DNA of 64,000 nucleotides from Brenneria rubrifaciens (GTDB lineage: Bacteria > Pseudomonadota > Gammaproteobacteria > Enterobacterales > Enterobacteriaceae), in NCBI RefSeq assembly GCF_005484945.1, contig NZ_CP034035.1:1550001-1614000 (forward strand). The letters run 5' to 3'. Both the position numbers and the translations under genes were made by a program. Within the stretch, counting starts at the first letter, position 1. Each line of letters begins with the position of its first letter. The notes beneath the pieces were generated by a model, which was not told the DNA's origin, searched no databases, and saw nothing but the letters and a program-made list of their open reading frames with translations. Shown here piece by piece: positions 31,641 through 52,733 of the stretch.

Positions 31641-31653
31641 GTGATGACAAATT

Positions 31654-33150: not shown

Positions 33151-33159
33151 TTCGCTGTT

Positions 33160-33187
33160 ACCGGATTTTTATTGATAAAAATACCGG
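33160..33187 (+). other. hairpin in the sufB-sufC gap
   Basis: ACCGGATTTTTAT and ATAAAAATACCGGT can pair with one bulged base and a two-base loop. There is no T run after it, so it is unlikely to terminate. sufC is needed together with sufB and sufD, so a processing or mRNA-stability role is more likely. In E. coli the sufB-sufC gap is only about ten bases. Confidence 0.55.
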
Positions 33188-33237
33188 TCACAAAAATGAT
33201 GAGCGTCGCAAACTATTCGGCGCCGGAAGGATAGAGC

Positions 33238-33984: not shown

Positions 33985-35296
33985 CCCGAACGTCAAGAAA
34001 ACGGGCATCGAACAGAAGCAGGAAAAAGCCTTGCGGCAATGGCATGACCTGTTTGAAACCAAAACCGCGCAGCGCTCGGCGGATGCGCGTCAGCACTGGC
34101 AGGAAGTGCTGCGTCTTGGGTTGCCGCACCGCAAGCATGAACACTGGAAATACACGCTGTTGGACGGGTTGCTGGCGCACGAGTTTGTGGCTCCGCAAGT
34201 GCCGTCGGTCACGCGGGACGAGCTGAATGCGCTGGCGCTGCCTGTTGATGCATGGCGTCTGGTGTTTATCGACGGTGTCTTCTCCGCGTCGCTCAGCGAC
34301 GCGCAGTGGGGGCCTTATCAGGTTGATATTCAAACCGCCCGTACGCACGGTGAATTCCCTGCGGCCGTCCAGTCGGAAGTGTTTCTGCATCTGACGGAAA
34401 GTCTGGCGGCGCAGAGTACATTGATTCGTCTGGCGGCTAATCAACAGGCTGAAAAACCCTTGTACCTGCTGCATATCAGCAGTAGTCAAGGGACGGCGTT
34501 GAATACGGTTCATCACCGCCACCATCTGGATGTCGCACGCGGCGCCAGCGCGCAGATTATTGAACACTATGTCAGTCTGGACGAACACGCGCACTTCACC
34601 GGCGCGCGTTTAACGGTGAGCGCGGGCGAAAACAGCCGCGTCAACCACTATAAGCTGGCCTTTGAAGCCGCTGCCGGTTATCACTTCTCGCATAACGATC
34701 TGGTGCTGTCCCGCGACGCGCAGGTTCGTAGCCACAGTTTTCTGTTGGGCGCAGGCTTGACCCGTCATCACACCAGCGCGCAATTGAATGGCGAAGGGAC
34801 GAATCTGGGCATCAACAGCCTTATTCTGCCCATCGGCAGCGAGGTGTGCGACACCCGTACTTATCTGGAACATAACCAGGGGCATGGCGAAAGCCGCCAG
34901 TTGCACAAAACCATCGTCAGCGATCGCGCCAAAGCGGTGTTCAACGGCATGATTAAAGTAGCGCCGAATGCGCTGAAAACCGATGGTCAAATGACCAACA
35001 ATAACCTGTTGCTGGGACGACTGGCTGAGGTAGATACCAAGCCGCAGTTGGAAATCTATGCCGATGATGTGAAATGCAGTCACGGCGCCACGATTGGTCG
35101 CATAGATGAAGAGCAGCTTTTCTATCTGCGTTCACGCGGCATCACCCGGCAGGATGCGCACCAGATGATTATTTTCGCGTTTGCCGCCGAAGTGACGGAA
35201 GCCATTGAAGATGAATTATTGAGAGAGGTGGTGTTAAAACGTATCGCGAAACGCTTGCCGAACACTCAAGCAGACATAGGAAAGGCAGAGCTATGA
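33959..35296 (+). CDS. sufD: Fe-S assembly subunit SufD
   Basis: Paralogue of SufB that completes SufBC2D and is needed for iron acquisition. 445 residues, about twenty more than usual because of the basic N-terminus [20 protein letters not shown]. The C-terminal half has the beta-helix and the family motif [27 protein letters not shown]. The ATG at 33959 overlaps sufC; a start further in is possible. The stop overlaps sufS by four bases. Confidence 0.95.
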
Positions 35297-36516
35297 GTTA
35301 TCCCATCGAACAGGTTCGCGCGGATTTCCCGTTACTGGCCAGAGAGGTGAACGGGCAACCGCTGGCTTATCTCGACAGCGCCGCCAGTGCGCAAAAGCCG
35401 CAAGCGGTGATCGACCGCGAAGTGGCTTTTTATCAGCGGGAATATGCCGCTGTGCATCGCGGTATCCATACGCTGAGTGCGCAGGCGACCAGTGCGATGG
35501 AAGCGGTGCGTGAACAGGTGGCGGCATTCATTAATGCCGCTTGCGCGCAGGAGATTGTCTTTATGCGCGGCACGACGGAAGCCATCAATCTGGTGGCCAA
35601 CAGTTTCGGCCGTGCATTCCTGCAAGCCGGGGACAATCTCATCATTACCGAGATGGAACATCACGCTAATATCGTTCCCTGGCAAATGCTCGCGGAAGCA
35701 CGGGGTGTGGAAGTGCGCGTTATCCCGTTAACGTCGGAGGGAACGCTGGATTTGTCCTGCTTGCCCGCATTGCTGGATGAGCGTACCCGTTTGGTGGCGG
35801 TAACGCACATTTCCAACGTGCTTGGGACGTTGAATCCGGTAAAGGACATTATCGCTCAGGCGAAAGCCGCAGGTGCGGTGGTTCTGGTGGATGGCGCTCA
35901 GTCGATTTTGCATCAGTCGATCGATGTGCAGGATTTAGATTGTGATTTCTTTGTTTTTTCGGGACATAAAATTTATGGCCCTTCCGGTATCGGCGTGCTG
36001 TATGGCAAACGTGCATTGCTGGAGTCAATGCCGCCCTGGGAAGGCGGCGGCGCGATGATCCATCAGGTCAGCCTGCGCACAGGAACAACTTATGCGGATG
36101 TGCCGTGGCGCTTTGAGGCCGGCTCACCCAACACGGCCGGGATCATGGGATTGGGCGCGGCGCTGAGTTATGTGACCGCGCTGGGATGTGACGCTATTCA
36201 GCGCTATGAATCCTCTCTGATGCGCTATGCGTTGGAAACGCTGGCTCAAGTGCCGGATTTAACGGTGTACGGTCCTGCGGAACGTCATGGGGTCATTGCG
36301 TTCAACCTGGGGCGGCACCATGCCTATGATGTAGGGAGTTTTCTCGACCAGTATGGGATTGCGATCCGCACAGGCCACCACTGTGCGATGCCACTGATGG
36401 AACATTATGCCGTTCCCAGTATGTGCCGTGCCTCGCTTGCCGCTTATACTACGCGTGAAGAAATCGACCGGTTGGTCGCCGGGCTGCAACGTATACATCG
36501 ATTGCTGGGCAACTGA
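35293..36516 (+). CDS. sufS: cysteine desulfurase SufS
   Basis: PLP enzyme that takes sulfur from L-cysteine and gives it to SufE. 407 residues. The PLP lysine is in [15 protein letters not shown] (about residue 226) and the catalytic cysteine in [12 protein letters not shown] (about residue 364), the group II arrangement, in contrast to the group I enzyme at 42906. Overlaps sufD by four bases. Confidence 0.97.
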
Positions 36517-36547
36517 GCCTTGCGCCACGTCGCCTGGGGAGGAAAAA

Positions 36548-36967
36548 ATGGCAAGTCTGCCGGAACCGCAGAAATTAGTACGTAATTTTTCGCGCTGTCA
36601 TAACTGGGAAGAGAAATACCTTTATATCATTGAACTGGGCGCCCGGCTTGAACCGTTGCCGGAAATCTGGCGTCAGGCTGAAAATTTGATTTCCGGTTGC
36701 CAAAGCCAGGTCTGGATTGTGATGCAATGTGACGAGCGGGGACGCATAATCCTGCATGGTGACAGTGATGCCGCTATTGTGAAGGGATTGATTGCCTTGG
36801 TGTTCAGTCTTTATCAAGGGTTGAGTGCACGAGAGATCGTTGAACTGGATGTTCGTCCTTTCTTTGAAGAACTGGCATTAAATCAACATTTAACGCCGTC
36901 CCGTTCTCAGGGGCTGGAAGCGATGCTGCGGGCGATCCGCGCTCGCGCCTTGTCGCATGTCCAATAA
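36548..36967 (+). CDS. sufE: sulfur acceptor protein SufE
   Basis: Accepts persulfide sulfur from SufS and hands it to SufB. 139 residues; the acceptor cysteine is in [11 protein letters not shown] (about residue 51). ATG 36548 has GAGG upstream; the open frame from 36407 reaches back into sufS and is not real. Last gene of the suf operon. Confidence 0.96.
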
Positions 36968-40525: not shown

Positions 40526-40745
40526 ACGTTGGTTTCTACAAGTTGTGGTGGATAAAAAACGTAGCACCGGCAGCAGCAGGAAAACCGCTTCCGGAAAAAT
40601 GCATTTGGAAACGATCTTAAACAGACAAGTATAGATGGTTGCAGCGAACAGATGATGAAAGCGTAACCGCTTGTCGCATATTGTTAGCGTGATAAGAGTA
40701 GGCGATGCCGTTGACAATAGCGTTATTGATTGTGGCACGTGTGTA

Positions 40746-40762
40746 AGCTGAAACCATTCAGT
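40746..40762 (-). promoter_or_regulatory. probable Cra (FruR) operator upstream of pykF
   Basis: AGCTGAAACCATTCAGT is a palindromic match to the Cra consensus GCTGAAACGTTTCA-type site. It lies about 220 bases before the pykF ATG. Cra represses pykF in E. coli, the mirror image of its activation of ppsA. Confidence 0.65.
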
Positions 40763-41367
40763 GAAACAACGTTTCGTATTATAGTTATTGGGCGATGAGA
40801 AACAAGCTGGTAAAACCTATCAAAGTCAATATTTTGTCATTTTTACGCAAAAAACCGAGCTGTTTGCAATTTTTACCTGCCTATGTTGCTCAACTGCATA
40901 GAAAACTCCATAAAAAGAGGAAAGATCACCGCCGGTATGCAGTGCCGTTGACAGGATTCTGCCGCAATTTATTTAGAAAAACACTATGTAAATAAAGCGT
41001 TCTCTATCAATCTGTATGGGGGTTTGCCGTCATCGAATTTGAGAGAATAATAACAAGTGATGGTTTGTCCGTCATTGTGGACGGTGACGGCGCAAACGGG
41101 CAAAACCAGATTATGCCGGTGACAGCGCTATTAATGGCGGATTATCGCTATTGATAATAACGCCTAAGGCATCTTCTGCACTGATGTGACAAATTTGTTT
41201 CAAGGCTTCAATTTTTCTGACGGTGAATTAGATTCTATGTTGTTTTTAATGGTTTCTTAATTTATGCGAAACATATTCGCTAATATATGTTAGCAAGTTT
41301 ATTCAAGAATAATACGATAGTATATAGCATACTGATAGGGAATTTTTAATTAGAGTGAAACTATACT
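40763..41367. other. pykF-to-cluster junction, no supported gene
   Basis: The sequence turns AT-rich here. A 66-codon plus frame at 40795-40995 and a 53-codon frame without a usual start (40996-41154, containing VIEFERIITSDGLSVIVDGDG) are present; I do not consider either a proven gene, but the second could be the remnant of one. The left edge of the accessory region lies somewhere in this stretch. The last 100 bases, including the short dyad AGTAT-ATAGC-ATACT at 41319-41333, should hold the promoter of the biosynthetic cluster. Confidence 0.5.
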
Positions 41368-42537
41368 ATGGACAATTTGGTTAATATCTATAATGGAATA
41401 AAATTATTAGGTGGTTCTCCTTTAAAATGGTTGATTTCCGATGTCGATGCTTTATATCGTCTCTCTATTGAAGAGCAAAAAATATTAAAGACACTTTTAA
41501 TTAAAGAGGCTTTTAGCTTTCATTATAATAATAATCACTATTATCGGAAACTATGCGATGAGCAGGGTGTTTCTCTCTCAGATATCAATGAATTTGATGA
41601 TCTGGTTCGTATCCCCTTGATTCCTATTTCTGTTTATAAGTCAACAGATAATTTTAAATTGCTCAGCATACCGTTGAATGAAGTGGAACATGAAATGTTT
41701 TCAACGGGGACGAGCGGTATCCCTAGCATCAATCGGCGGTGTCACGAAACGATGAATAATACGGTTTTAACCGTATATACAAATTATCGTTCAATGTTTA
41801 AAATATCTTCCGGGGCAGGTCTATGTTTGTGTCCTTCCCCAGAAGATGCTCCTGAAATGGCATTAGTGAAGATATTTAATTTTCTTACCGGACTGCTTGA
41901 TACAAGGTATTATGCGGTTCAACGCAATGAATTTGATTGTGATAACGTGTTGGAACAATTAGCAGGTTGGCAAAATAATTTTACGCGACATATCATGGGA
42001 CCGCCATTTATGGTACATCGCTTTATTTCTCACCTAAAAAAGAGAAATATCAAGCTCGAATTGGATAAAGACAGCTTGATAATTATGATGGGTGGATGGA
42101 AACGTTTTTCCGGTGAAATGATTTCCCGTTCGGAATTAAATCAGGATATCACTAATTGGTTGGGTATCCCCCCTGAACATATCCGTGATATGTATGGCAT
42201 GGCGGAAGCCAATGTGTTGGCAATTGAGGATGAGTACCACCACAAACATGTTCCCCCTTATATTCACTTTTCAGTGCGTAATCCCGAAGATATCACGCAA
42301 GAAGTACCGGACGGCGAAATTGGTCAGTTGGCGGTGTTGGACCCTTTAGCAATTTCGGTGCCCGCATTGTTATTAACTGAGGATTTGGTCTATTTGCGTA
42401 CAGACAAATGTAAAAGTTGGCGCAATTCTCAGCGCGTGGAGTTTGTGTCAAGAACATCAGCGGCTAAAGAGTTTGGATGCTGTGCCGTCAATCTTGAAAG
42501 AAAGCTGGCGAACAACGATGAGAGAGAAAACCTTTAG
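41368..42537 (+). CDS. LuxE-like acyl-protein synthetase
   Basis: 389-residue adenylate-forming enzyme of the LuxE family (acyl-protein synthetase), which activates a fatty or other carboxylic acid as acyl-AMP and passes it to a protein thiol. Motifs: the nucleotide loop EMFSTGTSGIPS (about residue 111), MGGWKRFSGE (about 238) and the DMYGMAEAN adenylation motif (about 272). The C-terminus is Cys-containing (FGCCAVNLERK), as in LuxE, where a C-terminal Cys accepts the acyl group. The lux reductase and transferase partners LuxC and LuxD are absent, so light production is excluded. First gene of the AT-rich cluster; loading of a starter acid onto the ACP, or delivery of an acyl group to a sulfur carrier, are guesses. 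Confidence 0.82.
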   Translation: MDNLVNIYNGIKLLGGSPLKWLISDVDALYRLSIEEQKILKTLLIKEAFSFHYNNNHYYRKLCDEQGVSLSDINEFDDLVRIPLIPISVYKSTDNFKLLSIPLNEVEHEMFSTGTSGIPSINRRCHETMNNTVLTVYTNYRSMFKISSGAGLCLCPSPEDAPEMALVKIFNFLTGLLDTRYYAVQRNEFDCDNVLEQLAGWQNNFTRHIMGPPFMVHRFISHLKKRNIKLELDKDSLIIMMGGWKRFSGEMISRSELNQDITNWLGIPPEHIRDMYGMAEANVLAIEDEYHHKHVPPYIHFSVRNPEDITQEVPDGEIGQLAVLDPLAISVPALLLTEDLVYLRTDKCKSWRNSQRVEFVSRTSAAKEFGCCAVNLERKLANNDERENL

Positions 42538-42552
42538 GATGAATAAAATATT

Positions 42553-42909
42553 ATGTTTAATGATATTATTATAGATAATTTCTGCAATCCTGAACATCAA
42601 GGCGAAGTGGTTAATCCAGGCATTAGACTCTCTCTGGGCAATTCTGTATGTGGAGATAAAGTAGATATTGATTTAGTGATTGATGATCAGAATATTATCA
42701 AAGAAGCGAAGTTCCGCGCATGGGGGTGTACGGCATTATTAGCGATGGCTAACTTATTTTGTCGCGTTGTGGAAGGAAAGGTTATGCATGAAATTTCTGC
42801 TATGCCTTCAAATGAAATAGATAAGCTTTTAGGTGCGTTGGCGCCTTCTCAGCATCACTGCATTGACATGCTTCATGATTTATTCAGGCAGCTAAGGGAC
42901 TGTAAATGA
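42553..42909 (+). CDS. IscU/NifU-N-like sulfur or Fe-S scaffold protein
   Basis: 118-residue protein of the U-type scaffold family. All three conserved cluster/persulfide cysteines can be seen: NSVCGDKV, AWGCTAL and HHCIDML. Four further cysteines, including one near the N-terminus (NFCNPEH), are present. Typical IscU receives sulfur from a cysteine desulfurase and assembles [2Fe-2S]. The desulfurase gene starts within its last codons (ATGA overlap), so the pair is translationally coupled. The remaining isc genes are absent and the housekeeping suf operon is nearby, so this pair seems pathway-specific. Confidence 0.85.
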   Translation: MFNDIIIDNFCNPEHQGEVVNPGIRLSLGNSVCGDKVDIDLVIDDQNIIKEAKFRAWGCTALLAMANLFCRVVEGKVMHEISAMPSNEIDKLLGALAPSQHHCIDMLHDLFRQLRDCK

Positions 42910-44087
42910 GCGGATTATATTTCGATCATAACGCGACAACGCCTCTCAGTCCTGGCGTTAAGCGTGCGATACAAGAAGCTATGGATATTTTTGCAAACCC
43001 ATCGGGAAGTCACCAATTCAGTTTTTCAGCGAAGGCAATGATAACTGAAGCCAGAACGTCGGTCGCGCAGTTGCTGGGGACCCCGATTGAGAATATTGTG
43101 TTTACCTCTGGGGGAACGGAAAGTAATAATTTAGCGCTCGGTAGCATACTCAACACAGCGCCGGAGGGAAGTTGTGCCAAATGCCATATAATCTGTTCCT
43201 CTATTGAACATCCCTCGGTTTTGAATATCTTACGCTGCTACCAGCAGCAAGGCGGTGCATTGACAATCGTTGATCCAGATAAGACGGGGAGAGTTTCCGC
43301 CTTAGATATTCAAAAAGCTTTACGTCCAAATACACGTTTGATCGTGCTTATGGCCGTTAATAATGAAACAGGTGTGATTCAACCTTTTGTTGAGGTATCA
43401 AGAATAGCAGCACGGGAAAACGTTTACCTACATGTAGATGCTGTTCAGGCCGTGGGGAAAATACCGATTAATTGTCGCCACTTAACCGGTATTTCCACAC
43501 TATCGTTTTCCGGCCATAAGTTTAATGCTCCAAAAGGAATTGGCGGTTTATATTATGCGCCGAATATAAATCTCCGACCGAATATCCTAGGGGGCGGCCA
43601 GGAGTATGGTTTGCGCAGTGGCACCGAGAATACACTGGGCTTGGCCGGGTTGTCTGTGGCGGCGAAAGAGGCGTATTGCGACATGGTGTCACGCTATGAA
43701 ATCTGTCAACAGATGAGGGACCGGTTTTTGGAACGGTTAAATAAGCTTGGGATACGTTATATTGTTAATGGAAGTCCTCACCCCGATAATCAAACTCCCT
43801 GGACGATGAATATCAGTTTTCCTGGTATTCGGGCTGAATCGTTGGCCAGTAGATTGGATCTGTGTTACGGCATTTCTTTGTCATTGAGTTCTGCATGCAG
43901 CAACAATACGACTAAGCGCCGTTCTTACGTACTGAGTTCGATGGGATTATCGGATGAAAACATTGACGGCGCACTACGTATTAGCCTGGGCCATACGACA
44001 TCCGCCCAGGATATTTTACTTTTAGCCGATGCGTTAGCTGAAGAGTCTTCTCATCTGTATCGAATGGCTGGATTTAATATTAATTAA
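42906..44087 (+). CDS. NifS/IscS-type cysteine desulfurase
   Basis: 393-residue PLP enzyme, group I cysteine desulfurase. Motifs: FDHNATTPLSPGV at the N-terminus, TSGGTESNNLALG (about residue 67), the PLP-contact histidine in CSSIEHPSV, HVDAVQAVGK, the Schiff-base lysine in LSFSGHKFNAPKG (about 202) and the mobile-loop active cysteine in SLSSACSNN (about residue 327). All catalytic residues are intact. It is clearly different from SufS at 35293. With the IscU-like neighbour it should deliver persulfide sulfur to a step of the cluster's pathway. Confidence 0.9.
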   Translation: MSGLYFDHNATTPLSPGVKRAIQEAMDIFANPSGSHQFSFSAKAMITEARTSVAQLLGTPIENIVFTSGGTESNNLALGSILNTAPEGSCAKCHIICSSIEHPSVLNILRCYQQQGGALTIVDPDKTGRVSALDIQKALRPNTRLIVLMAVNNETGVIQPFVEVSRIAARENVYLHVDAVQAVGKIPINCRHLTGISTLSFSGHKFNAPKGIGGLYYAPNINLRPNILGGGQEYGLRSGTENTLGLAGLSVAAKEAYCDMVSRYEICQQMRDRFLERLNKLGIRYIVNGSPHPDNQTPWTMNISFPGIRAESLASRLDLCYGISLSLSSACSNNTTKRRSYVLSSMGLSDENIDGALRISLGHTTSAQDILLLADALAEESSHLYRMAGFNIN

Positions 44088-44138
44088 ATCTTAATTAGAC
44101 ATGATGGTTTTTTTAAATATAAAAATTGAGAGTAAACA

Positions 44139-44375
44139 ATGGACGTTTTTAATTTTCTTAAAGAACAAATTATTGAGTTGACAGACACTGATGAAGATAT
44201 TCTTAGCGTTGATATGGAGCTAGACACAATTGGCCTGGTGAGTTTGGACTATATATCAATACAAGTTGCATTAAAAAGAATGTCAGGCGTTAACCTGGAA
44301 TTAAAAAAGGCCGAGCTTTCAAGTATTAAAACGCTTGGCGATCTGGTGGGGTATATAGAGGCTCAGTGCTGTTAA
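44139..44375 (+). CDS. acyl carrier protein, atypical
   Basis: 78-residue acidic helical protein of ACP size and fold (MDVFNFLKEQIIELT...). The phosphopantetheine serine sits in GLVSLDYISIQ (about residue 35). The usual DSL is VSL, but the serine and following LD remain, so modification is plausible. A double Cys ends the protein (EAQCC). Directly before the ketosynthase gene, it is the likely carrier of the cluster's growing chain. Confidence 0.82.
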   Translation: MDVFNFLKEQIIELTDTDEDILSVDMELDTIGLVSLDYISIQVALKRMSGVNLELKKAELSSIKTLGDLVGYIEAQCC

Positions 44376-44453
44376 TATTAATGAGGAATGTTATGCTCAT
44401 TAATTCAGTACGGTTCAAAACAGTGCTTATTTTTTCATATAGGAAGTGATGAT

Positions 44454-45722
44454 ATGTCTGTTTCTCGAAGACTTAACCGTGTCGTGGTTACAGGATACGG
44501 TGGGATCTGTCCGCTTGGGGGAAATAGCCAGGATATTTGGAACGCTATTCTTGCTTATCGCCTCGGCTATACGTTAGTTTCCCACCCCAACGAGGATGTT
44601 GTGGCCAAGTTTTTTGGTCATATTCCTTTTCATGTTGATGTTTCACGTTTTTCAAAGAAATTACTGAAATATCTTCCCCGATTTAGTCGATTAGGGCTTA
44701 TTGCAGCTGATGAAGCATTGAGCATGGCGTTTGGGAAAGATAGTCGCCGTTCTCTTGATGAAATCTATTCTCCCCATGAACGCGGCGTTATTTTTGGCAC
44801 GGGGTGGGGTGGGGAAGATGATATTGCTGAAAATGGGGAAGCTTACACAAGACAATCTCTTGCTTCTCCTTTAAGTAATATTATGGCAATGCCGAGCGTT
44901 GGATCGGCAGCCATCTCGATGAATTGGAATCTTTGCGGATATCAGAATACACCTGTCGCTGCCTGCGCGTCAGGAAGCATCGCGATTGGCGATGCATTTG
45001 AAATAATCCGAAGCGGCCGAGCCAAGATGATGCTGGCGGGGGGAGGAGAGAGCATACGTCACCCCTTCTCTGTCTGGAATATTGATATTCTCGGTGCGCT
45101 CAGTAAAGAGCAGGAGAATGAGCGGAAGGCCTGTTGCCCCTTTAGTCTGGATCGCAGCGGCTTTGTTTTATCTGAGGGAGCGGCGGTTTTATGTCTGGAA
45201 GAGTATGAAAATGCGGTTACGCGTGGCGCGCCGATTTTGGCTGAGATTATTGGGTACAGTAATTTCTCCGACGCCTGGGATGTGACGGCGCCGGACCCAA
45301 ATCTTAACGGCCGGATGATGGTTATTCAGACAGCATTGAGTCAGTCGAAGGTCGCTGTACAAGATATTGACTATATTAATGCGCACGGTACTTCCACGCC
45401 GTTAAACGATCTTAATGAAACATTGGCTTTGAAAAAGAGTTTTGGGAAGTCGGTGTACAATATTCCCATCTCCAGTACAAAATCCTATACCGGACATCTG
45501 ATTGCCGCCTCGGGAGCCATGGAGTCTATTTTTTGCGTCAAGGCGATTGAGGAAAGTATCGCGCCTGCCACATTGAATTTACTGAATCCTGATCCCGAGT
45601 GTGATTTGGATTTCATCCCTAATAAACATCGTGTACTTCCTCGTTTAGAAACGGCGCTAAATGTTAACTATGGGTTTGGCGGTTCTAATAGCGCCTTATT
45701 ATTTAGCAAAGCTAAGTTATGA
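44454..45722 (+). CDS. beta-ketoacyl-ACP synthase (FabF-like ketosynthase)
   Basis: 422-residue condensing enzyme. The catalytic Cys is in VAACASGSIAIG (about residue 167), the two histidines in INAHGTSTPLND (about 308) and SYTGHLIAASGA (about 345), so the Cys-His-His triad is complete. No chain-length-factor partner follows, so it acts alone, like FabF. ATG 44454 with AGGAAG ten bases upstream is chosen over ATG 44388. Overlaps the next gene by four bases (ATGA). Confidence 0.92.
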   Translation: MSVSRRLNRVVVTGYGGICPLGGNSQDIWNAILAYRLGYTLVSHPNEDVVAKFFGHIPFHVDVSRFSKKLLKYLPRFSRLGLIAADEALSMAFGKDSRRSLDEIYSPHERGVIFGTGWGGEDDIAENGEAYTRQSLASPLSNIMAMPSVGSAAISMNWNLCGYQNTPVAACASGSIAIGDAFEIIRSGRAKMMLAGGGESIRHPFSVWNIDILGALSKEQENERKACCPFSLDRSGFVLSEGAAVLCLEEYENAVTRGAPILAEIIGYSNFSDAWDVTAPDPNLNGRMMVIQTALSQSKVAVQDIDYINAHGTSTPLNDLNETLALKKSFGKSVYNIPISSTKSYTGHLIAASGAMESIFCVKAIEESIAPATLNLLNPDPECDLDFIPNKHRVLPRLETALNVNYGFGGSNSALLFSKAKL

Positions 45723-46516
45723 ATATCTGTTATACATCGACCGACCTAATGCGATGGGCTGAGTTTTCTAACGATTTCAACCCTATTCATTTCAATCTCT
45801 CTGCGGCCCGAAGTATCGGCATTCCAAATATTGCCGTACACGGAATGTTGATGATGTTGCCTCTAAAGGTGAACTGTGATGACTATCAAAGGGAGAAGGC
45901 GCATGCGGGATGGCAATGGAAGGCGTCATTACGCCAGCCCATCCTTGCCAATACACAGTGCTTGTTCAATATACAACACCCTACGTTGTCTGGAAAAACG
46001 TTATTCAGTTTATGTCATGGTGACGGCAGTACCACTAAAAACCTGATTGGATATCACGCGCCTTTTTCATTTCATAACCTGCATTGTGAATCGCTGGCGA
46101 AACTTGCGCGTTACAGCTTGCCTCCCAAATGTGTAGTTGAAAAACAAAAAACATTTCAACAATACTATCCGAATATCACCGCGCTTTGGATTTTTATTGA
46201 TGCCCTTATTTTCTCACAGCTTCTTGGTCAACATGCAAAAACGTTGATCAGAGAAGCGTTTTATCCCTATCTGAAAGAACAGGGAAAAAATACCGAGGAT
46301 ATATTTATCTTGCACACGACGCATAAAGTGATGTTGTCCCCGACGATACAGACATTATCTTTGTCCGGTGAAATAGGGGTGATCAATTATACTATAAGCG
46401 TTGATCCATCTTTTATTGTCGACAATAAATTGTGCAATATGCTGACTCTTCCTGTTTGGCTTGATGGGGAGTTGGTTATTGTTATTGAAATCAGTCTTGT
46501 AGGAATAACGGTATGA
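45719..46516 (+). CDS. MaoC-like hydratase/dehydratase
   Basis: 265-residue protein whose first 130 residues are a MaoC-type hotdog. The hydratase-2 motif is visible as SNDFNPIHFNLSAARSIGIP (about residues 17-36) followed by AVHGML, with the catalytic Asp and His in place. The second half looks like a degenerate second hotdog with no motif. It should dehydrate a 3-hydroxyacyl thioester made by the reductase encoded next. Coupled by ATGA overlaps on both sides. Confidence 0.82.
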   Translation: MNICYTSTDLMRWAEFSNDFNPIHFNLSAARSIGIPNIAVHGMLMMLPLKVNCDDYQREKAHAGWQWKASLRQPILANTQCLFNIQHPTLSGKTLFSLCHGDGSTTKNLIGYHAPFSFHNLHCESLAKLARYSLPPKCVVEKQKTFQQYYPNITALWIFIDALIFSQLLGQHAKTLIREAFYPYLKEQGKNTEDIFILHTTHKVMLSPTIQTLSLSGEIGVINYTISVDPSFIVDNKLCNMLTLPVWLDGELVIVIEISLVGITV

Positions 46517-47289
46517 AGGGATTGACAGCCTTTATTGAAAAACAAGAAATAAGCGGCATTCGTTGGGTCTTTGTTTCCGGCGGTTCAAGGGGAATAGGAA
46601 AGTGTATTGTGAAAATGCTGGCAGGTTCGGGATTGCACGTGGTTTTTACCTATCGTAAAAATGGGCAGGCGGCGCAGGAAATTGTCAATGAGCTTCAACA
46701 GGCGGGATTGTCCAGTGAGGCATATTGTTGTGATGTCTCAGATAGGGAACAAGTTAATTCTTTGGCTAATTTATTGCTTTCCCGATTAAAGTCTCCCTAT
46801 GCTGTTATAAATAATGCAGGTATAGTTCGGGATAGTTTGCTGGTTAATATGTCGCACGATAACTGGCTTGATGTTATTAATGGAAATCTCAACGCTATTT
46901 ACTTTGTTAATAAAGCTTTTCTACCTGAAATGATTGTTGAGGGTAATGGTTGTATTGTTAATATCAGCTCCATTTCTGCGTTCAAAGGAAATACGGGGCA
47001 AAGCAATTATGCTGCGTCAAAGGCAGCAATGATCGGTGTGACACGCGCTTTGGCGGTTGAGTTAGGGCGTTTTAATATCCGAGTCAATGCTATTGCCCCG
47101 GGATTGATCGACACCGATATGGTTGCAGATATGTCTTTATCGGAGAAAAAAAGTATTTTGAAAAAAATTCCGCTGCCCCGAATGGGAACCCCGGAAGATG
47201 TTGCGCTAGCCGTGTTATTTTTATTAGGAGAAGGGGGGCGATATATTACGGGTCACACTTTGGTCATTGATGGCGGTATGAGCGTATAA
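46513..47289 (+). CDS. 3-oxoacyl-ACP reductase (FabG-like short-chain dehydrogenase)
   Basis: 258-residue SDR. The cofactor motif is SGGSRGIG (TGxxxGIG type, about residues 22-29), followed by NNAG (about 96), the active-site Ser in NISSISAF and YAASK (about 161-165). FabG-like C-terminal PGLIDTDM and DGGMSV. Expected to reduce the ketosynthase product with NADPH. Last gene of the coupled biosynthetic set; a 156-base gap follows before the exporter genes. Confidence 0.9.
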   Translation: MKGLTAFIEKQEISGIRWVFVSGGSRGIGKCIVKMLAGSGLHVVFTYRKNGQAAQEIVNELQQAGLSSEAYCCDVSDREQVNSLANLLLSRLKSPYAVINNAGIVRDSLLVNMSHDNWLDVINGNLNAIYFVNKAFLPEMIVEGNGCIVNISSISAFKGNTGQSNYAASKAAMIGVTRALAVELGRFNIRVNAIAPGLIDTDMVADMSLSEKKSILKKIPLPRMGTPEDVALAVLFLLGEGGRYITGHTLVIDGGMSV

Positions 47290-47318
47290 GTATCAAAATA
47301 GCTGGTTTTTTCAATTTA

Positions 47319-47347
47319 TTAGCGATGTTATCCGTTAAGCTCGCTAA
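47319..47347 (+). promoter_or_regulatory. dyad before the exporter genes
   Basis: TTAGCGA and TCGCTAA form a seven-base inverted repeat with a 15-base spacer in the gap between the SDR and emrA-like gene. It could be a regulator site for a separate exporter promoter or an mRNA hairpin. There is no T run, so a terminator is unlikely. Confidence 0.35.
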
Positions 47348-47445
47348 CAGAATTCAACCTTTATAATTGATCCAATGGGTTCTGTTGAGCTGGCTTTAAG
47401 ATGTTAAGAGTAAGGCAAACGAATCTCATTGCTGCTGGAAGGTAT

Positions 47446-48618
47446 ATGACTGCACGCGCGCTGCTTAAACCTCATACAGAACAGCCTAACAAACGCAAAA
47501 AGTCGATAGTTGTCGCCTCGGTATTATTTATCCTGATGGCAATAGGCTATTGCCTCTATTGGTATCTGGTGTTGTGCCATTATCAAACCACTAATGATGC
47601 CTATGTTGTCGGTAATCAGGTAAACGTTATGGCCCAGGTCGCTGGAAGCGTAAGTAAAATTTATGCCGAAAATACTCAGCGAGTTAACAAAGGCGATATA
47701 TTGCTTGAATTGGAGCCTACCGATGAGCAGGTGTCTTTTATCTATGCTCAAAATATGCTGGCGAGTGCCGTCAGACAAACTCAACAAAAGATAGTTGATC
47801 AGAATCGTCTGCGGGCTAAGGTGCGTTTGAAACAACTCGCTTTGCGAAAAGCCGAGAGTGATTTTAAGCGTCGGGCAAATTTGGCAGATCGCGGGGCGAT
47901 TGATAAAGAAACGTTGCAGCACGCCAAAATGCAGATGCAAATGGCGCAGGCCGAGCTCGACGTTGTCCGCGAGCAACTGCGTGCGGGCGATGCGCTGCTT
48001 CTGGATACGCCGTTACCCCAGCAACCGGCCATTCAGCAGTCTGCGAGCCGATTGCGTGAGGCCTGGCTGAGTTTGCAACGTACTAAAATTGTTGCGCCTG
48101 CCGCCGGATATGTATCGCGCCGCAACGTTCAAATTGGCGCCAGGGTTAACAAGGGGTCGTCTCTGATGGCGATCATCCCTGAGGAACAGCTATGGGTAGA
48201 CGCCAATTTTAAGGAAACCCAAATCCGCGATATGCGTATTGGACAAGCAGTCAGGCTGGTCAGCGATGTTTATGGCGATAAAGTGATTTATCAGGGGAAA
48301 ATTGTCGGATTGGATATGGGCACCGGCAGTGCTTTCTCGTTACTCCCTGTACAGAATGCAACCGGAAACTGGATCAAGGTGGTGCAACGTGTCCCGGTGC
48401 GCATTGATCTGGAACCGAACCAATTGAAGCGGTATCCGCTACGCATCGGTTTGTCCATGACGGCGACCGTTGATATCACGGATAACGCCGGCCCTGCACT
48501 GGCTGTCAGAAGCGACGAGCAGATCCGTTATCAAACGGAAACCTTGTCTTACGAGCAAGCCCCGATTAATGAGTTAATTTCACAAATTATTGCCAGAAAC
48601 GTGCAGGCGGGGGGATGA
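47446..48618 (+). CDS. EmrA-like membrane fusion protein (HlyD family)
   Basis: Periplasmic adaptor of a tripartite efflux pump. One N-terminal membrane helix (about residues 22-44), then the biotinyl-lipoyl half-motif YVVGNQVNVMAQVAGSV, a long coiled-coil hairpin (about 90-190) and the second half-motif IVAPAAGYVSRRNVQIGARV, ending with the barrel domain. It is close to E. coli EmrA in length (390 residues from this start) and in segments such as LWVDANFKETQIRDMRIGQ. ATG 47446 was chosen by length and the GGAAGG upstream; ATG 47401 is possible. Confidence 0.88.
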   Translation: MTARALLKPHTEQPNKRKKSIVVASVLFILMAIGYCLYWYLVLCHYQTTNDAYVVGNQVNVMAQVAGSVSKIYAENTQRVNKGDILLELEPTDEQVSFIYAQNMLASAVRQTQQKIVDQNRLRAKVRLKQLALRKAESDFKRRANLADRGAIDKETLQHAKMQMQMAQAELDVVREQLRAGDALLLDTPLPQQPAIQQSASRLREAWLSLQRTKIVAPAAGYVSRRNVQIGARVNKGSSLMAIIPEEQLWVDANFKETQIRDMRIGQAVRLVSDVYGDKVIYQGKIVGLDMGTGSAFSLLPVQNATGNWIKVVQRVPVRIDLEPNQLKRYPLRIGLSMTATVDITDNAGPALAVRSDEQIRYQTETLSYEQAPINELISQIIARNVQAGG

Positions 48619-48625
48619 GAGTGCA

Positions 48626-50146
48626 ATGGTAAAAGAGCCGTTATCTGGTGCGCGTCTGGGATGGTTAACCTTTATGCTGGCGTTTGCTGCTTTTATGCAA
48701 ATCCTGGATCTCACCATTGCCAATGTTTCCATTTCCACGATTTCAGGCGATATCGGTGCTTCAACGTCACAGGGCACCTGGGTTATCACGTCGTTTGCCG
48801 TCGCAAATGCGATTTCCATTCCATTAACGGGGTGGCTGGCCAGGCGTTTTGGTGAAGTGCGCCTGTTTCTGATCGCTACGTTGTTGTTTGTTGTAGCCTC
48901 CTGGTTATGCGGTATTGCGAATAATATCGCGATGTTGATTGTCGCGCGTATTCTTCAAGGTGCTGTTGCGGGGCCGATACTTCCATTGTCGCAAAGCCTG
49001 TTGCTAAGCCATTATCCGCCACAAAAACGCAACATGGCATTGGCGTTCTGGTCCATGACGTTAATTGTCGCACCTATCTGTGGCCCGCTACTTGGCGGCT
49101 GGATTAGCGATAATTACCATTGGGGCGGAATATTTCTGATCAATATTCCATTCGGCATCGTAATTGTTCTTACCGTGGGTCTGTTGCTGAAAGGGAAGGA
49201 AACAGTCACGGAGCGTCAGTTGGTGGATAAAATAGGGCTGTTGCTATTAATCGTTGGCGTAGGATGCTTTCAGTTGTTATTGGACCGGGGAAAAGAGTTG
49301 GATTGGTTCAACTCGACGGAAATCATCGTATTGGCAATCATAGCGGTGGTTTCCGTGACTTTTCTGATTATCTGGGAGCTTACCGATAGCAGTCCGATTA
49401 TTGACCTGAAGTTGTTCAAGTCGCGTAACTTTACTGTCGGCACGCTTTGTATCAGCCTGGCGTTTTTATTACACATCGGTACGCTGGTATTGCAACCTCA
49501 ACTGTTGCAAACCGTGTTTGGCTACACCGCTACGTGGGCGGGACTGGCAATGGCGCCTATTGGTATCTTACCGCTGTTTCTGGCGCCGTTGATTGGCCGC
49601 TTCAGTGAAAAATTCGATATGCGTTATTTGGTGACTTTCAGTTTCATTGTTTTTGCCTGTTGCTTTTTCTGGCGCGCTTTGACATATGAGCCTTCAATGG
49701 GATTTGCAGCCGCAGTTTGGCCCCAGTTTATTCAAGGATTGGCTATTGCAACATTTCTTATGCCGTTGAATGCGATTATTCTGTCTGATATTGAGCCTTC
49801 TAAGGTCGCCTCTGCCGGGAGTTTATTTAATTTTTTGCGCACCCTGGCAACATCCATCGGCACATCGCTGACGACCACATTGTGGTCGCGTCGCGAGGCC
49901 TGGCATCATGAACGTTTAACCGAGTCAGTAACCCTTTATAACCCTCTCCAGGAAGAGACATATCGGCAACTGTCCGAACAGGGGTTGACGCAGCAGCAGA
50001 GTTTTAATCAATTGAACCAGATCATTACCCAACAGGGGTTGATCATCGCGGCCAATGAGATTTTCTGGTTATTTGGTTTTATTTTCTTGCTGTTGTTGGC
50101 ATTGGTATGGATATCGAAGCCGATACCTAAGATAATATCGGCCTGA
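48626..50146 (+). CDS. EmrB-like MFS exporter (DHA2, 14 helices)
   Basis: 506-residue proton-driven exporter with about fourteen helices. Family motifs: LDLTIANVSISTISGDIGAS at helix 1, GWLARRFGEVRLF (motif A) and GPLLGGWISDNYHWGGIFLINIPFG (motif C region). Follows emrA-like after seven bases. E. coli EmrAB exports hydrophobic compounds together with TolC; here it probably exports the cluster product. No outer-membrane factor is encoded nearby. Confidence 0.9.
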   Translation: MVKEPLSGARLGWLTFMLAFAAFMQILDLTIANVSISTISGDIGASTSQGTWVITSFAVANAISIPLTGWLARRFGEVRLFLIATLLFVVASWLCGIANNIAMLIVARILQGAVAGPILPLSQSLLLSHYPPQKRNMALAFWSMTLIVAPICGPLLGGWISDNYHWGGIFLINIPFGIVIVLTVGLLLKGKETVTERQLVDKIGLLLLIVGVGCFQLLLDRGKELDWFNSTEIIVLAIIAVVSVTFLIIWELTDSSPIIDLKLFKSRNFTVGTLCISLAFLLHIGTLVLQPQLLQTVFGYTATWAGLAMAPIGILPLFLAPLIGRFSEKFDMRYLVTFSFIVFACCFFWRALTYEPSMGFAAAVWPQFIQGLAIATFLMPLNAIILSDIEPSKVASAGSLFNFLRTLATSIGTSLTTTLWSRREAWHHERLTESVTLYNPLQEETYRQLSEQGLTQQQSFNQLNQIITQQGLIIAANEIFWLFGFIFLLLLALVWISKPIPKIISA

Positions 50147-50177
50147 AAAATATTATATGTATGGGGGTTATTGTCAT

Positions 50178-51038
50178 TTACGGGGTGCTCACAAGTTGCT
50201 GTGAATACGCTGTTGTATTGTGCATATTATCTCGGCATACAGGGCAATTATTACTGGTTTTTTTAAATTTCCATAATGTATTGTTATGCAGTGCCTGCCT
50301 TAAAGATGATGGGCGCAAACCGAAAGTCGTCATGCAGGTTCGGCTGAAATGGGCGCAATCGGAAAATCCACAATCACTTGCCAGCGACGTTAATGTGGTA
50401 TCGCAATCAATGTTTCCAACTGCATCTCGAAAGCGTTGCCAGAGTAGATAGCCACGAAAATTAATTCCCATTTTATCGCGAAACAAGTGTAAGAAACGGC
50501 TTTCAGACAGAAATATACGCGCTGAAATCGTTTTTGAAGAAACACATTTCACGGGTAAACTGTTCATTAGCGATACCGCTCTGTCAATGCGTTTATCCGT
50601 CTGGCATCTGCAAGGCGGGTATGGCGTCAGCAATCGTTCCACCTGAATAAGATCCAGAGAAACATGTGTTGTGAGTGCTTGCTGAACCAACGAGACCAAC
50701 ATTAACGCCGAATAATAATCAAGTAAGGTCAGGCTATTAGAGGTAGTTCGATGCACCAGCCGGTGATAATTAGGATCGGCAGGGTCGACGAGTAAATTAA
50801 TACAGCACTGAGAAGATGTATCTAATCGATGCGGAAGGTTGGGGGGAATAATAAAGCCATAAGATTTTTGGGCTCCACTTTCTGCTTCTATCGTAATCAG
50901 TTCATTATGAGGGGAAAGACAAATTTGCAGGCAAGGATGACTATGCCATTCAGCGATCATATTATGAGACAGTATTATATTCAGTGTGGAGAATGGGTGT
51001 TGCCTGATGAAATAAAGAGGATTTAAATTTTTCATCAT
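50178..51038 (-). CDS. AraC-family transcriptional regulator
   Basis: 286-residue regulator convergent with the exporter gene, with only 31 bases between. The N-terminal half (about residues 20-110) resembles a cupin effector domain (EWHSHPCLQIC). The C-terminal 100 residues contain two helix-turn-helix motifs ending with FSDCAHFSRTCMTTFGLRPSSLR, the AraC signature region. ATG 51038 has AAGGAG nine bases upstream; a TTG at 51062 would place that site inside the gene. Probably the pathway regulator of the neighbouring cluster; effector unknown. Confidence 0.87.
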   Translation of the reverse strand: MMKNLNPLYFIRQHPFSTLNIILSHNMIAEWHSHPCLQICLSPHNELITIEAESGAQKSYGFIIPPNLPHRLDTSSQCCINLLVDPADPNYHRLVHRTTSNSLTLLDYYSALMLVSLVQQALTTHVSLDLIQVERLLTPYPPCRCQTDKRIDRAVSLMNSLPVKCVSSKTISARIFLSESRFLHLFRDKMGINFRGYLLWQRFRDAVGNIDCDTTLTSLASDCGFSDCAHFSRTCMTTFGLRPSSLRQALHNNTLWKFKKTSNNCPVCRDNMHNTTAYSQQLVSTP

Positions 51039-51108
51039 TTTTACCGACTCCTTGTAAGACAAAATAATAACGCAAAGTGATGTTTTTGACGTTAGTCGAA
51101 TATATCTA

Positions 51109-51144
51109 TTTTCTCTATGAGAAAATTAAAACGCATAGAGAAAA
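51109..51144. promoter_or_regulatory. perfect 11-base inverted repeat upstream of the AraC gene
   Basis: TTTTCTCTATG (51109-51119) and CATAGAGAAAA (51134-51144) are exact complements separated by 14 bases, about 70 bases before the AraC ATG. A dyad this perfect is a good operator candidate, although AraC proteins usually bind direct repeats, so another regulator or an RNA hairpin is also possible. Confidence 0.5.
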
Positions 51145-51499
51145 AATTAACGAATCCTATTCGCGATCATAGATACCCCTTTCGACCCACACGCTTTTAC
51201 CACTCGCTATAAGGCATGTCAACAATGGACTGAGTGTGATTACCCAAAGTGTCGTCAGGATACGCCAATGCTGAACACATAACCGTGCCGTGGTTGCGTG
51301 TCCTTCGGTCGCGCAAAGTGAGTGGCAAAAAACCAGAAAAAAGCAAGGACGTGAAAGCGAAAAGTATCTTTGCGGAAATCAGCCAGTTTTTTCAAGCTTC
51401 ATCTATAAATAGTAGTCTACCTTGTCGCAGCATCAACAGGGGTTGTGTAGCAAAGCCACTGGTGAAACATCATTTGGAACGACGTTGCGGAGTAACGGT
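51145..51499. other. no supported gene between dyad and flavoprotein gene
   Basis: The frame at 51249-51503 has a usable ATG but no family I know and only poor start context. The sequence shows Cys-rich coding potential (DYPKCRQD) in another frame that could be a remnant of a zinc-finger or transposase gene, but I cannot show it. The promoter of the flavoprotein gene should lie in the last part. Confidence 0.35.
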
Positions 51500-52609
51500 G
51501 TGAAAAAAACGGAATGCATTATTGTCGGTGCCGGACAGGCTGGTTTGAGTGTGGCTAAGGCGCTGAGGAAAAAAAGGATTGATTGCGTATTGCTGGAAAA
51601 AGATCGGCGGATAGGTGATGTCTGGCGTAGAAGGCAAGATAGTATGCGGCTATTTACATCGCGAGCCATGACTGAACTGCCTGGTCTATCGATGAGGGGA
51701 GAAAGGAACGGTTATCCTGATAAACATGAGGTTGCAGATTATCTGGAGCGTTATGCGCGGTATTATGATTTGGATCTGTGCACCGAAATGGAAGTGAAAG
51801 CGGTTCATTGCCAGGACGGTATGTATCAGGTTTATGCAAATGACGATCGGACTTTCCAGGCACCGTGTCTGGTAAACGCGACAGGCGCTAATCAATTAGC
51901 CATTGTCCCTCCTGAAGCGGAGCAACTGTCGGAAGAGGTTATCCAGTTAAGTGCCGATCAATACCAAAGACCGGAACAAGTGGGAAAAGGGAGAAAGATC
52001 ATCATTGTGGGGGATGGCTCCAGCGGTAGGATGATTGCCCGGGAACTGTCCGCTGAACATCAGGTCACTCTATTTTGCGGTGCCAGACGCGTTTTTATTT
52101 CTCATCACATTTTTGGGAAAGATATTTTCTGGTGGCTGACCGCAACGCGGATTCTTTATGCGGATACCCACAGTTTGATAGGTAAAATTCTGCGACGCAG
52201 AAATCCTATTCCCAGTAAGTCGTTGAACGACGACAAACTGGTTGACGCAGGCATCCGTTTGGCGGGGAGACTAGAGCGTTGTGACGGCCGGTATTTAATC
52301 GATTCCGAAAGGCGGCGTTATAAAGCCGATGTTGTTATATGGTGTCTGGGCTACCGTGAAGATACACGCTGGCTGACGTTACCGGATGCGGTGGATGAGC
52401 ACGGTTTTATCTGCGAAAACGGCTATCAACATGGTGGTAAGACGCCTTACCCGGGTTTATTCATTGTCGGTAAAAAATGGCTTAGTTGCCGTGGATCGGA
52501 ACTGGTGCAAGGCGCCGCTAAAGATGCGATGAGGGTGGCTGACTGGATTGAATGTTATCTGGATGATTTTTCAAAAAACCAAACTACACTTCGCGACAAT
52601 GAAAGATGA
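51500..52609 (+). CDS. flavin-dependent monooxygenase-like oxidoreductase (CzcO type)
   Basis: 369-residue flavoprotein. FAD site VGAGQAGLSVAKAL at residue 9 and a second nucleotide site VGDGSSGRMIAREL (about 166), a domain plan of CzcO-like flavin monooxygenases. The classic FMO fingerprint is not clearly seen, so oxygenation is not certain; disulfide or thiol oxidation is another possibility. GTG 51500 has GGAG seven bases upstream; the ATG at 51422 lacks such a site. It shares the AT-rich style of the cluster across the AraC gene and might be a tailoring enzyme. Confidence 0.75.
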   Translation: MKKTECIIVGAGQAGLSVAKALRKKRIDCVLLEKDRRIGDVWRRRQDSMRLFTSRAMTELPGLSMRGERNGYPDKHEVADYLERYARYYDLDLCTEMEVKAVHCQDGMYQVYANDDRTFQAPCLVNATGANQLAIVPPEAEQLSEEVIQLSADQYQRPEQVGKGRKIIIVGDGSSGRMIARELSAEHQVTLFCGARRVFISHHIFGKDIFWWLTATRILYADTHSLIGKILRRRNPIPSKSLNDDKLVDAGIRLAGRLERCDGRYLIDSERRRYKADVVIWCLGYREDTRWLTLPDAVDEHGFICENGYQHGGKTPYPGLFIVGKKWLSCRGSELVQGAAKDAMRVADWIECYLDDFSKNQTTLRDNER

Positions 52610-52733
52610 AATAACCCACTGTTTCGGAAATGGACCCGAGTACCGAATTCGGACGAATTTCAATGGAATGTAATCACTTCTATTCAATAAACCACAACGT
52701 TCACCCTCAAGGTGGGGTGAATTACGGCGTGGC

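What the first reader, a model, noticed from the sequence alone, without database searches (positions are those of the whole stretch)
41368..50146. Compact fatty-acid/polyketide-type cluster with its own cysteine desulfurase and IscU-like scaffold
Seen directly: LuxE-like synthetase, IscU-like, NifS-like, ACP, one ketosynthase, MaoC-like, FabG-like, then EmrAB-like exporter, mostly with ATGA overlaps or short gaps, in an AT-rich block between pykF and D-amino-acid genes. Family knowledge says ketosynthase, dehydratase and reductase make or extend an acyl chain on the ACP, and the desulfurase/scaffold pair mobilises sulfur. Inference: an exported acyl product that carries sulfur (thioacid, thiol or thioamide), or a pathway that needs a dedicated Fe-S supply. 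I know of no described pathway with exactly this set.
Basis: partly seen in the sequence, partly recalled or inferred. Interest (0 to 1): 0.85.

Follow-up and report, generated by a model that had tools for sequence, protein, structure and literature searches.

The report
LuxE–IscU–IscS acyl-sulfur biosynthesis cassette
This is a mobile gene cassette that appears to attach sulfur to a fatty-acid-like chain and export the product, using an activating enzyme related to one from bacterial bioluminescence together with its own sulfur-delivery pair; the product is unknown.

Summary
The same set recurs in 12 Photorhabdus loci and two Gilliamella-family genomes and, with the ketosynthase/dehydratase/reductase replaced by a fatty acyl-AMP ligase, in Xenorhabdus, Colwellia, Priestia and others. 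LuxE, IscU, IscS, ACP and the monooxygenase are detectable in 23 of 23 loci compared. The IscU/IscS pair is not housekeeping: seven of seven other cassette genomes searched carry a separate full-length IscU. Four annotated plasmid LuxE relatives that I opened sit beside LuxC-type reductases; here IscU/IscS take that place. LuxE keeps the acyl-accepting cysteine (C372) and gains a neighbour (C371), Cys in 120 of 120 family sequences but Gly/Ser/Thr in six other LuxEs. IscU keeps its ligands but lacks the LPPVK chaperone motif (0 of 120). Best reading: an acyl chain is activated on LuxE, sulfurated by IscS→IscU, probably to a thioacid, possibly S-oxygenated, and exported by EmrAB. The chemistry is inferred; no product is known. 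The open-access searches made showed no description of this set.

The parts
41368..42537 (+). LuxE-like acyl-protein synthetase (389 aa) with C-terminal vicinal cysteines C371-C372
   Evidence: PF04443 7.3e-42; closest solved chain by sequence 7xc6_E, LuxE; C63, C371 and C372 invariant in 120 of 120 distinct sequences, the window's own included
42553..42909 (+). IscU/NifU_N-like sulfur or Fe-S carrier (118 aa); C33, D35, C59, H102, C103 kept, PSQxHC in place of LPPVKxHC
   Evidence: PF01592 5.8e-19; motif counts in 120 listed relatives, own included
42906..44087 (+). NifS/IscS-type cysteine desulfurase (393 aa), catalytic C331 by alignment
   Evidence: alignment with the genome's own IscS- and NifS-like proteins
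44139..44375 (+). Acyl carrier protein (78 aa), Ser in GLVSLD
   Evidence: PF00550 2.8e-4; site
44388..45722 (+). FabF-type ketosynthase with ACASG, NAHGT and TKSYTGH sites (likely start near 44454)
45719..46516 (+). MaoC/hotdog dehydratase-like protein, N-terminal NDFNPIH motif
   Evidence: weak PF01575; six-sequence alignment; low-confidence model and Foldseek
46513..47289 (+). FabG-like ketoreductase, YAASK present
47401..48618 (+). EmrA-like membrane-fusion protein
   Evidence: NF011715 538.4 bits, a little under its cut-off of 563
48590..50146 (+). EmrB-like DHA2 MFS exporter
   Evidence: TIGR00711 579.7 bits over cut-off 230.2
50178..51062 (-). AraC-family regulator
   Evidence: PF12833 1.2e-14; an AraC-family gene in 20 of 23 loci
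51500..52609 (+). Flavin monooxygenase-like protein (GTG start inferred from the sequence)
   Evidence: PF13738 (scanned from the longer frame 51422); nearest solved chains 4usq, 4usr, 4a9w, 4c5o; a relative in 23 of 23 loci

Best explanation
A horizontally spread biosynthetic cassette that makes and exports an acyl compound sulfurated at its carboxyl end. Steps: (1) an acyl chain is built on the ACP by KS-KR-DH, or in other hosts a free fatty acid is loaded on the ACP by a fatty acyl-AMP ligase; (2) the acyl group reaches LuxE and forms a thioester on C372, as on the C-terminal Cys of lux LuxE; (3) IscS takes sulfur from cysteine and passes it as persulfide to the IscU-like carrier and on to LuxE, most likely to the neighbouring C371; (4) the persulfide attacks the acyl thioester and releases a thioacid (or acyl persulfide), leaving a C371-C372 disulfide to be re-reduced; (5) the flavin monooxygenase may oxidise the sulfur; (6) EmrAB exports the product under AraC control. 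Shown: gene content, conservation, module swap, the subfamily-specific Cys pair, the altered IscU motif, non-housekeeping status. Inferred: every chemical step, the order, and the product.
For: LuxE, IscU, IscS, ACP and FMO detectable in 23 of 23 loci, with the FabF-type KS/DH pair (14) and FAAL (9) never together. Five LuxE-family places on other plasmids, out of 51 records with a hit, were opened: four are annotated and all four lie next to an acyl-CoA reductase; the fifth has no annotation and its neighbours were not resolved. In these five and a lux-type LuxE on pox38, a Cys aligns with or corresponds to C372, but the residue before it is G, T or S (6 of 6); in the cassette family it is Cys in 120 of 120 distinct sequences and the GCC motif is in 24 of 24 loci scanned. 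That the C-terminal Cys is LuxE's acyl site and that the acyl passes to LuxC is stated in PMC8301110 (passages). The Cys pair lies in a tail with pLDDT below 50, which would fit a mobile arm. IscU C33, D35, C59, H102, C103 in 120 of 120; LPPVK-type motif 0 of 120; P[SAT]QxHC 120 of 120. 34 longest-contig lengths are shared between the 120 listed LuxE and 120 listed IscU relatives (own included), which suggests linkage beyond the loci I read. The flavoprotein's nearest solved relatives are flavin monooxygenases; that such enzymes oxidise sulfides is recalled.
Against: No product, mutant or enzyme assay was found. LuxE keeps an adenylation motif (STGTSG), which would need a free acid, whereas the cassette delivers acyl-ACP and has no obvious thioesterase; how the acyl reaches LuxE is unexplained. 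IscU keeps all Fe-S ligands, so an Fe-S role is possible. The FMO substrate is unknown. The vicinal Cys pair could serve another purpose (metal, redox). One further LuxE relative (G494, L059) has no IscU in the 4 kb fetched; it lies at a contig end and lacks the GCC tail. Two distant archaeal LuxE hits (L051, L052) show no such cassette. The Peribacillus locus has interrupted IscU and IscS frames.
Confidence: 0.45

Rival explanations
1. The product carries sulfur, but not at the carboxyl: the persulfide adds to the 2-enoyl-ACP made by KS/KR/DH (a 3-mercapto acyl, dithiolane or thiolactone), and LuxE only activates or releases the chain.
For: KS, KR and a dehydratase-like protein without an enoyl reductase would leave an enoyl-ACP. 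Thiotetronates are a precedent for cysteine-derived sulfur placed in a polyketide chain (PMC5518548, passages).
Against: In the FAAL version (9 of 23 loci) the KS/DH/KR set is absent, yet LuxE, IscU and IscS stay together.
Confidence: 0.2
2. IscU/IscS build an Fe-S cluster for an enzyme of the pathway rather than donating sulfur to the product.
For: All five IscU ligand residues are kept in 120 of 120 listed relatives, and IscU/NifU proteins are classical scaffolds.
Against: No other protein of the cassette matched an Fe-S family. The LPPVK motif is gone (0 of 120; present in the IscU of two sister genomes; its role in HscA binding is recalled). The constant neighbour is LuxE, an ATP-dependent acyl-activating fold.
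Confidence: 0.13
3. The pair compensates for the broken ISC operon of this genome.
For: iscU-iscA-hscB-hscA-fdx are missing from the isc locus, with a 17-codon iscU remnant.
Against: Seven of seven other cassette-bearing genomes searched keep a full-length IscU. Suf-type genes are in the window and NifU/NifS are elsewhere. G007 has only an iscU fragment but no cassette LuxE.
Confidence: 0.05
4. An acyl-ACP/desulfurase regulatory or redox complex, loosely like the mitochondrial ACP-NFS1-ISCU complex, with no sulfur in the product.
For: ACP is a subunit of the eukaryotic Fe-S assembly complex (PMC4991935, start of the abstract seen in the listing); here ACP, IscS and IscU are encoded together.
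Against: None of the 11 genes is an LYR/ISD11-type adaptor; an exporter and a swappable acyl-supply module point to a pathway product.
Confidence: 0.07

Closest known systems
LuxCDE fatty acid reductase complex (LuxE subunit)
   Same: LuxE family, adenylation motif and C-terminal acyl-accepting Cys
   Different: No LuxC or LuxD in the cassette; extra vicinal Cys C371; partner is IscU/IscS; 26.9% identity to the lux-type LuxE on pox38
Thiotetronate (thiolactomycin, Tu 3010) sulfur insertion
   Same: Cysteine desulfurase supplies sulfur to an ACP-bound polyketide (PMC5518548, passages)
   Different: Carrier there is a thiouridylase-like protein encoded at a separate locus; type I iterative PKS and P450; no LuxE or IscU in the passages seen
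Paulomycin / paulic acid
   Same: Cluster with desulfurase, ACP, acyl-CoA synthase and reductase linked to a sulfur-bearing acyl group (PMC4425429, passages)
   Different: ThiF/MoeZ-like protein and SufS-like desulfurase; product is an isothiocyanate; no hit for LuxE in that text
Photoxenobactin E thiocarboxylate (entomopathogenic bacteria)
   Same: A thiocarboxylic acid natural product from the same kind of host (PMC10915793 and PMC9396620, search listing)
   Different: Comes from a PKS/NRPS (pxb) cluster; no link to this cassette seen; PMC9177418 has no hit for 'LuxE' or 'desulfurase' in its main text (word search)
Pyridine-2,6-dithiocarboxylic acid / thioquinolobactin pathways (recalled, no call)
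   Same: AMP-activated carboxyl converted to a thioacid
   Different: Sulfur comes from a ThiS-like carrier with E1-like activation; here an IscU-like protein would take that role
SufU zinc-dependent sulfurtransferase
   Same: IscU-fold protein that can move persulfide sulfur (recalled; solved relatives listed)
   Different: Fails the SufU cut-off (51 against 92.5 bits); 118 aa with an adjacent H102-C103 pair, unlike SufU (recalled)

Membership tests
LuxE long-chain-fatty-acid-protein ligase | Pfam LuxE domain above cut-off | tested here: met
   144 bits against 24.9
LuxE long-chain-fatty-acid-protein ligase | NCBIfam equivalog NF052244 cut-off | tested here: not met
   163.6 against 550 bits
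LuxE long-chain-fatty-acid-protein ligase | C-terminal acyl-acceptor Cys aligned with that of lux LuxE | tested here: met
   C372 aligned; the site in P. phosphoreum is quoted in PMC8301110
LuxCDE fatty acid reductase | LuxC-type acyl reductase encoded in the cluster | tested here: not met
   none among the 11 cassette genes of the window
IscU Fe-S scaffold | NifU_N domain and the five Cys/Asp/His ligands | tested here: met
IscU Fe-S scaffold | IscU equivalog cut-off and LPPVK motif | tested here: not met
   51.8 against 192.4 bits; 0 of 120 listed relatives with the motif
IscU Fe-S scaffold | Assembles and hands over Fe-S clusters | not testable with these tools
   needs purified protein
Cysteine desulfurase (IscS/NifS group) | Class V aminotransferase fold with PLP Lys and catalytic Cys | tested here: met
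   PF00266; K205 and C331 invariant in an 11-row alignment with own IscS- and NifS-like proteins
Cysteine desulfurase (IscS/NifS group) | Any equivalog cut-off (IscS, NifS, DndA) | tested here: not met
   best NifS 314.6 against 530.75; DndA 289.9 against 480
Dnd/Ssp phosphorothioation defence | DndA/SspA with other Dnd or Ssp proteins beside it | tested here: not met
   the desulfurase matches the SspA and DndA profiles; no such partner is among the 11 cassette genes by Pfam; only four of the genes were scanned with PADLOC
Thiotetronate-type sulfur polyketide cluster | Desulfurase plus thiouridylase-like transferase plus P450 | tested here: not met
   no thiouridylase or P450 among the 11 genes; feature list from PMC5518548 passages
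Flavin monooxygenase (4usq/4usr/4a9w type) | Profile match to solved members | tested here: met
   4usq 5.7e-51, 4usr 1.3e-47, 4a9w 3.1e-46
Flavin monooxygenase (4usq/4usr/4a9w type) | NAD(P)H-dependent S-oxygenation | not testable with these tools
   needs assay

The most novel reading that the evidence does not exclude
A thioacid synthase assembled from a bioluminescence enzyme and an Fe-S scaffold: LuxE with a vicinal Cys pair holds the acyl group on one cysteine and receives sulfane sulfur from an IscU-family carrier on the other, so that IscU acts as a dedicated sulfur carrier for a secreted metabolite (thioacid, acyl persulfide or, after the monooxygenase, an S-oxidised or diacyl disulfide form). 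It would be a route to carbon-sulfur bonds independent of ThiS-type carriers, spread between gut symbionts, insect pathogens, marine bacteria, cyanobacteria and bacilli.
Probability: 0.38. Interest if true: 0.87.

Novelty: new variant of a known kind. Interest (0 to 1): 0.68.

Why it matters
If right, it adds an enzyme logic for putting sulfur on an acyl group and gives an IscU-family protein a role outside Fe-S assembly. It predicts a sulfur-bearing metabolite in insect and bee symbionts; a word search of the main text of one large natural-product survey of Xenorhabdus and Photorhabdus gave no hit for 'LuxE' or 'desulfurase'. It also gives a sequence handle (LuxE with GCC beside IscU with P[SAT]QxHC) to find such pathways in genomes.

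Tried and rejected
Housekeeping Fe-S pair: rejected as the general role. Phosphorothioation defence: the desulfurase matches DndA/SspA profiles but no partner genes are in the cassette. RNA element: no Rfam match at the gathering threshold in the cassette. Promoter-like sites 22 against 26.1 (sd 4.8) in shuffles and terminator-like sites 14 against 12.5 (sd 3.3), so not informative. Phage carriage: three phage records with LuxE/PaaK-type hits at about 26% identity, none near the identity of the cassette family; their neighbours were not looked at. Ordinary LuxCE reductase: no LuxC. The dehydratase model is low confidence (pLDDT 66), so its Foldseek list (dehydratases and thioesterases) only hints at a double-hotdog fold. 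Literature: searches found no paper with the asked terms; one search listed 20 of 58, 12 of 25 and 5 of 5 papers, none about this set by title and start of abstract; the library is open-access only.
Full report
WHAT IS THERE. The window is C1:1550001-1614000 of a 4,028,093-base single-contig genome. All eight genes of the finding are present on the + strand with domain support; the MaoC match is partial and below its cut-off. Gaps are 15, -4, 51, 12, -4, -4, 111 and -29 bases. The block 41368-52609 has 44.3% GC against 53.8% for the window outside 40701-52700. Active-site motifs are present in KS (ACASG, NAHGT, TKSYTGH), KR (YAASK), ACP (SLD) and the dehydratase-like protein (NDFNPIH). The desulfurase keeps K205 and C331 in an 11-row alignment with the genome's own IscS- and NifS-like proteins. 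Downstream, an AraC regulator (50178-51062, minus) and a flavoprotein (51500-52609, plus) belong to the same cassette, as the comparison below shows.

CONSERVATION. I dropped two distant archaeal hits (L051, L052; 24-25% identity, no cassette genes). L064 lies on a contig of the same length as that of a Gilliamella protein, hence 'Gilliamella-family'. By tblastn at E 1e-4, LuxE, IscU, IscS, ACP and the flavin monooxygenase are detectable in 23 of 23. Two are partial: IscU and IscS are interrupted in Peribacillus, and the monooxygenase of the Colwellia locus is cut by the contig end. The reference set for this comparison included proteins taken from L031, L048, L049 and L054, so for those loci some hits are to themselves; there the ACP and FAAL rest on Pfam, as do the flavoproteins of L048 and L049 and the AraC of L048. 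AraC-family genes are in 20; EmrA and EmrB in 18; FabF-type KS and DH in 14, with KR full-length in 13 and partial in one (L042). A fatty acyl-AMP ligase (FAAL; AMP-binding with a DIP2-like C-terminal domain) is in the other 9. No locus has both KS/DH/KR and FAAL; Peribacillus has FAAL plus PKS-like ketosynthase fragments. An additional Xenorhabdus locus (L032) also has the set and is not in the 23. So the acyl-supply module is exchangeable and the sulfur/LuxE/oxygenase core is fixed.

WIDER LINKAGE. Of 120 listed LuxE relatives (of 182) and 120 listed IscU relatives (of 354), both including the window's own, 34 longest-contig lengths coincide, 29 of them at 3 kb or more. They include Vibrio quintilis, Shewanella abyssi, Parashewanella, Rheinheimera, Alteromonas, Microbulbifer, Flocculibacter and a Nostocales cyanobacterium. 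This is an indirect sign of shared contigs, not a reading of each neighbourhood, and short lengths can coincide by chance. Fourteen Priestia plasmid records hit with LuxE and fourteen with IscU; in the ten records shown for IscU the two genes are adjacent by coordinates, and I opened one. The cassette LuxE is rare and patchy: 3 of 369 genomes across the class, one of them truncated, 5 of 394 in the order, 2 of 398 in the phylum sample, 2 of 44 in the family of L064, 1 of 4 in that of L058, and only the own genome at full length among 9 of the genus (two others had weak fragments). These samples overlap; those include the own genome. With the low GC this points to horizontal transfer.

NOT HOUSEKEEPING. 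The genome has four other desulfurase hits at 26-35% identity. Seven of seven other cassette genomes searched have a separate full-length NifU_N protein besides the cassette one. The window itself holds suf-type genes at 31095-36964.

LUXE. The nearest solved protein by sequence is LuxE of 7xc6 (2.2e-52); the AlphaFold model (pLDDT 86.4, pTM 0.85) matches PaaK-type ligases best by Foldseek. The C-terminal Cys of LuxE is the acyl transfer site and its acyl group passes to LuxC (PMC8301110, passages). I opened five more distant LuxE-family places on plasmids, of 51 records with a hit. Four are annotated and all four sit beside an acyl-CoA reductase; the Azospirillum record has no annotation and its neighbours were not resolved. 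In these five and a lux-type LuxE on pox38 (beside an annotated acyl transferase; LuxC was not in the 1.4 kb fetched) there is a Cys at the place of C372, but the residue before it is G, T or S, 6 of 6. In the cassette family both are Cys: 120 of 120 distinct sequences (one search counted the window's own twice, as 121) and 24 of 24 loci (23 plus window). C63 is also invariant. The Cys pair is in the C-terminal tail (368-389) with pLDDT below 50, as a mobile arm could be.

ISCU. Among 120 listed relatives C33, D35, C59, H102 and C103 are invariant; P[SAT]QxHC is in 120 and an LPPVK-type motif in none. The IscU of two sister genomes has LPPVKIHC. Recalled knowledge: LPPVK binds the HscA chaperone that releases Fe-S clusters. 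The cassette IscU therefore looks decoupled from that route but able to hold metal or persulfide.

HOW IT PROBABLY WORKS. Acyl chain on ACP (KS/KR/DH or FAAL), acyl thioester on LuxE C372, sulfur from cysteine by IscS via IscU to C371, release as thioacid or acyl persulfide, possible S-oxygenation by the monooxygenase (flavin monooxygenase by profile), export by EmrAB. The anatomy is shown; the chemistry is inferred. The weakest point is that LuxE's adenylation motif suggests a free-acid substrate while the cassette delivers acyl-ACP and has no clear thioesterase.

AGAINST MY READING. All Fe-S ligands of IscU are kept. A LuxE relative in G494 has no IscU within the 4 kb fetched; it is at a contig end with a different C-terminus. 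Peribacillus L049 has interrupted IscU and IscS frames. No published product or mutant was found, but the searches cover open-access text only, two of them were seen only in their top rows, and PMC9177418 was searched by word, not read through.

COMPARISON. Thiotetronates (PMC5518548, passages) and paulomycin (PMC4425429, passages) also pair a desulfurase with ACP-based chemistry but use thiouridylase-like or ThiF-like partners. Photoxenobactin E is a thiocarboxylic acid from entomopathogenic bacteria but comes from a PKS/NRPS cluster (search listing). The parts are known families; the combination and the LuxE and IscU signatures appear to be new.

VERDICT. A real, conserved, mobile cassette; a sulfur-bearing acyl product is likely and a thioacid the best guess. 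Interest 0.68.

Noticed in passing
G000:C1:2815000-2830000 (L074), minus strand about 6990-6775: The genome's isc operon has lost iscU-iscA-hscB-hscA-fdx: iscS is followed by a 17-codon iscU remnant and the tail of iscX, while sister G006 shows the whole operon and G001 all of it except that hscB was not resolved in my ORF list. No other PF01592 gene was found except NifU and the cassette IscU, and an HscA query finds only a 43% Hsp70-like protein and a weak second hit. iscA, hscB and fdx were not sought elsewhere.
   Followed up: partly
G007:C22:26016-26192: A second species of the same genus has only a fragment of iscU (positions 25-84, 80-aa frame) besides NifU, suggesting repeated decay of ISC in this genus.
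   Followed up: no
G000:C1:1825000-1840000 (L003, L075): NifU and NifS followed by a homocitrate-synthase-like gene (named by eye): the genome seems to carry a nif region.
   Followed up: no
window 31095-36964: A suf-type Fe-S operon (Fe-S_biosyn, two SufBD, an ABC ATPase, a class V aminotransferase, SufE; gene names by domain and order) lies about 4 kb upstream of the cassette.
   Followed up: partly
L058 2316-5256: In G376 the cassette has an MMPL exporter and a FabA-like hotdog protein next to it, with no EmrAB found.
   Followed up: no
L064 54-5824: In the Gilliamella-like genome the cassette lies beside ORFs that look phage-like by eye (first one lysozyme-like), a possible vehicle of transfer.
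   Followed up: no
LuxE relatives, C-terminus: 90 of 120 listed LuxE relatives have a CP[VIL] motif within the last 22 residues; the window and the listed Photorhabdus protein lack it. Function unknown.
   Followed up: no
L054 11435-11767 and L049 6861-7526: The bacilli versions have a carboxymuconolactone-decarboxylase/AhpD-type protein nearby, possibly a thiol redox partner.
   Followed up: no
window 25133-25243: An RprA small RNA.
   Followed up: no
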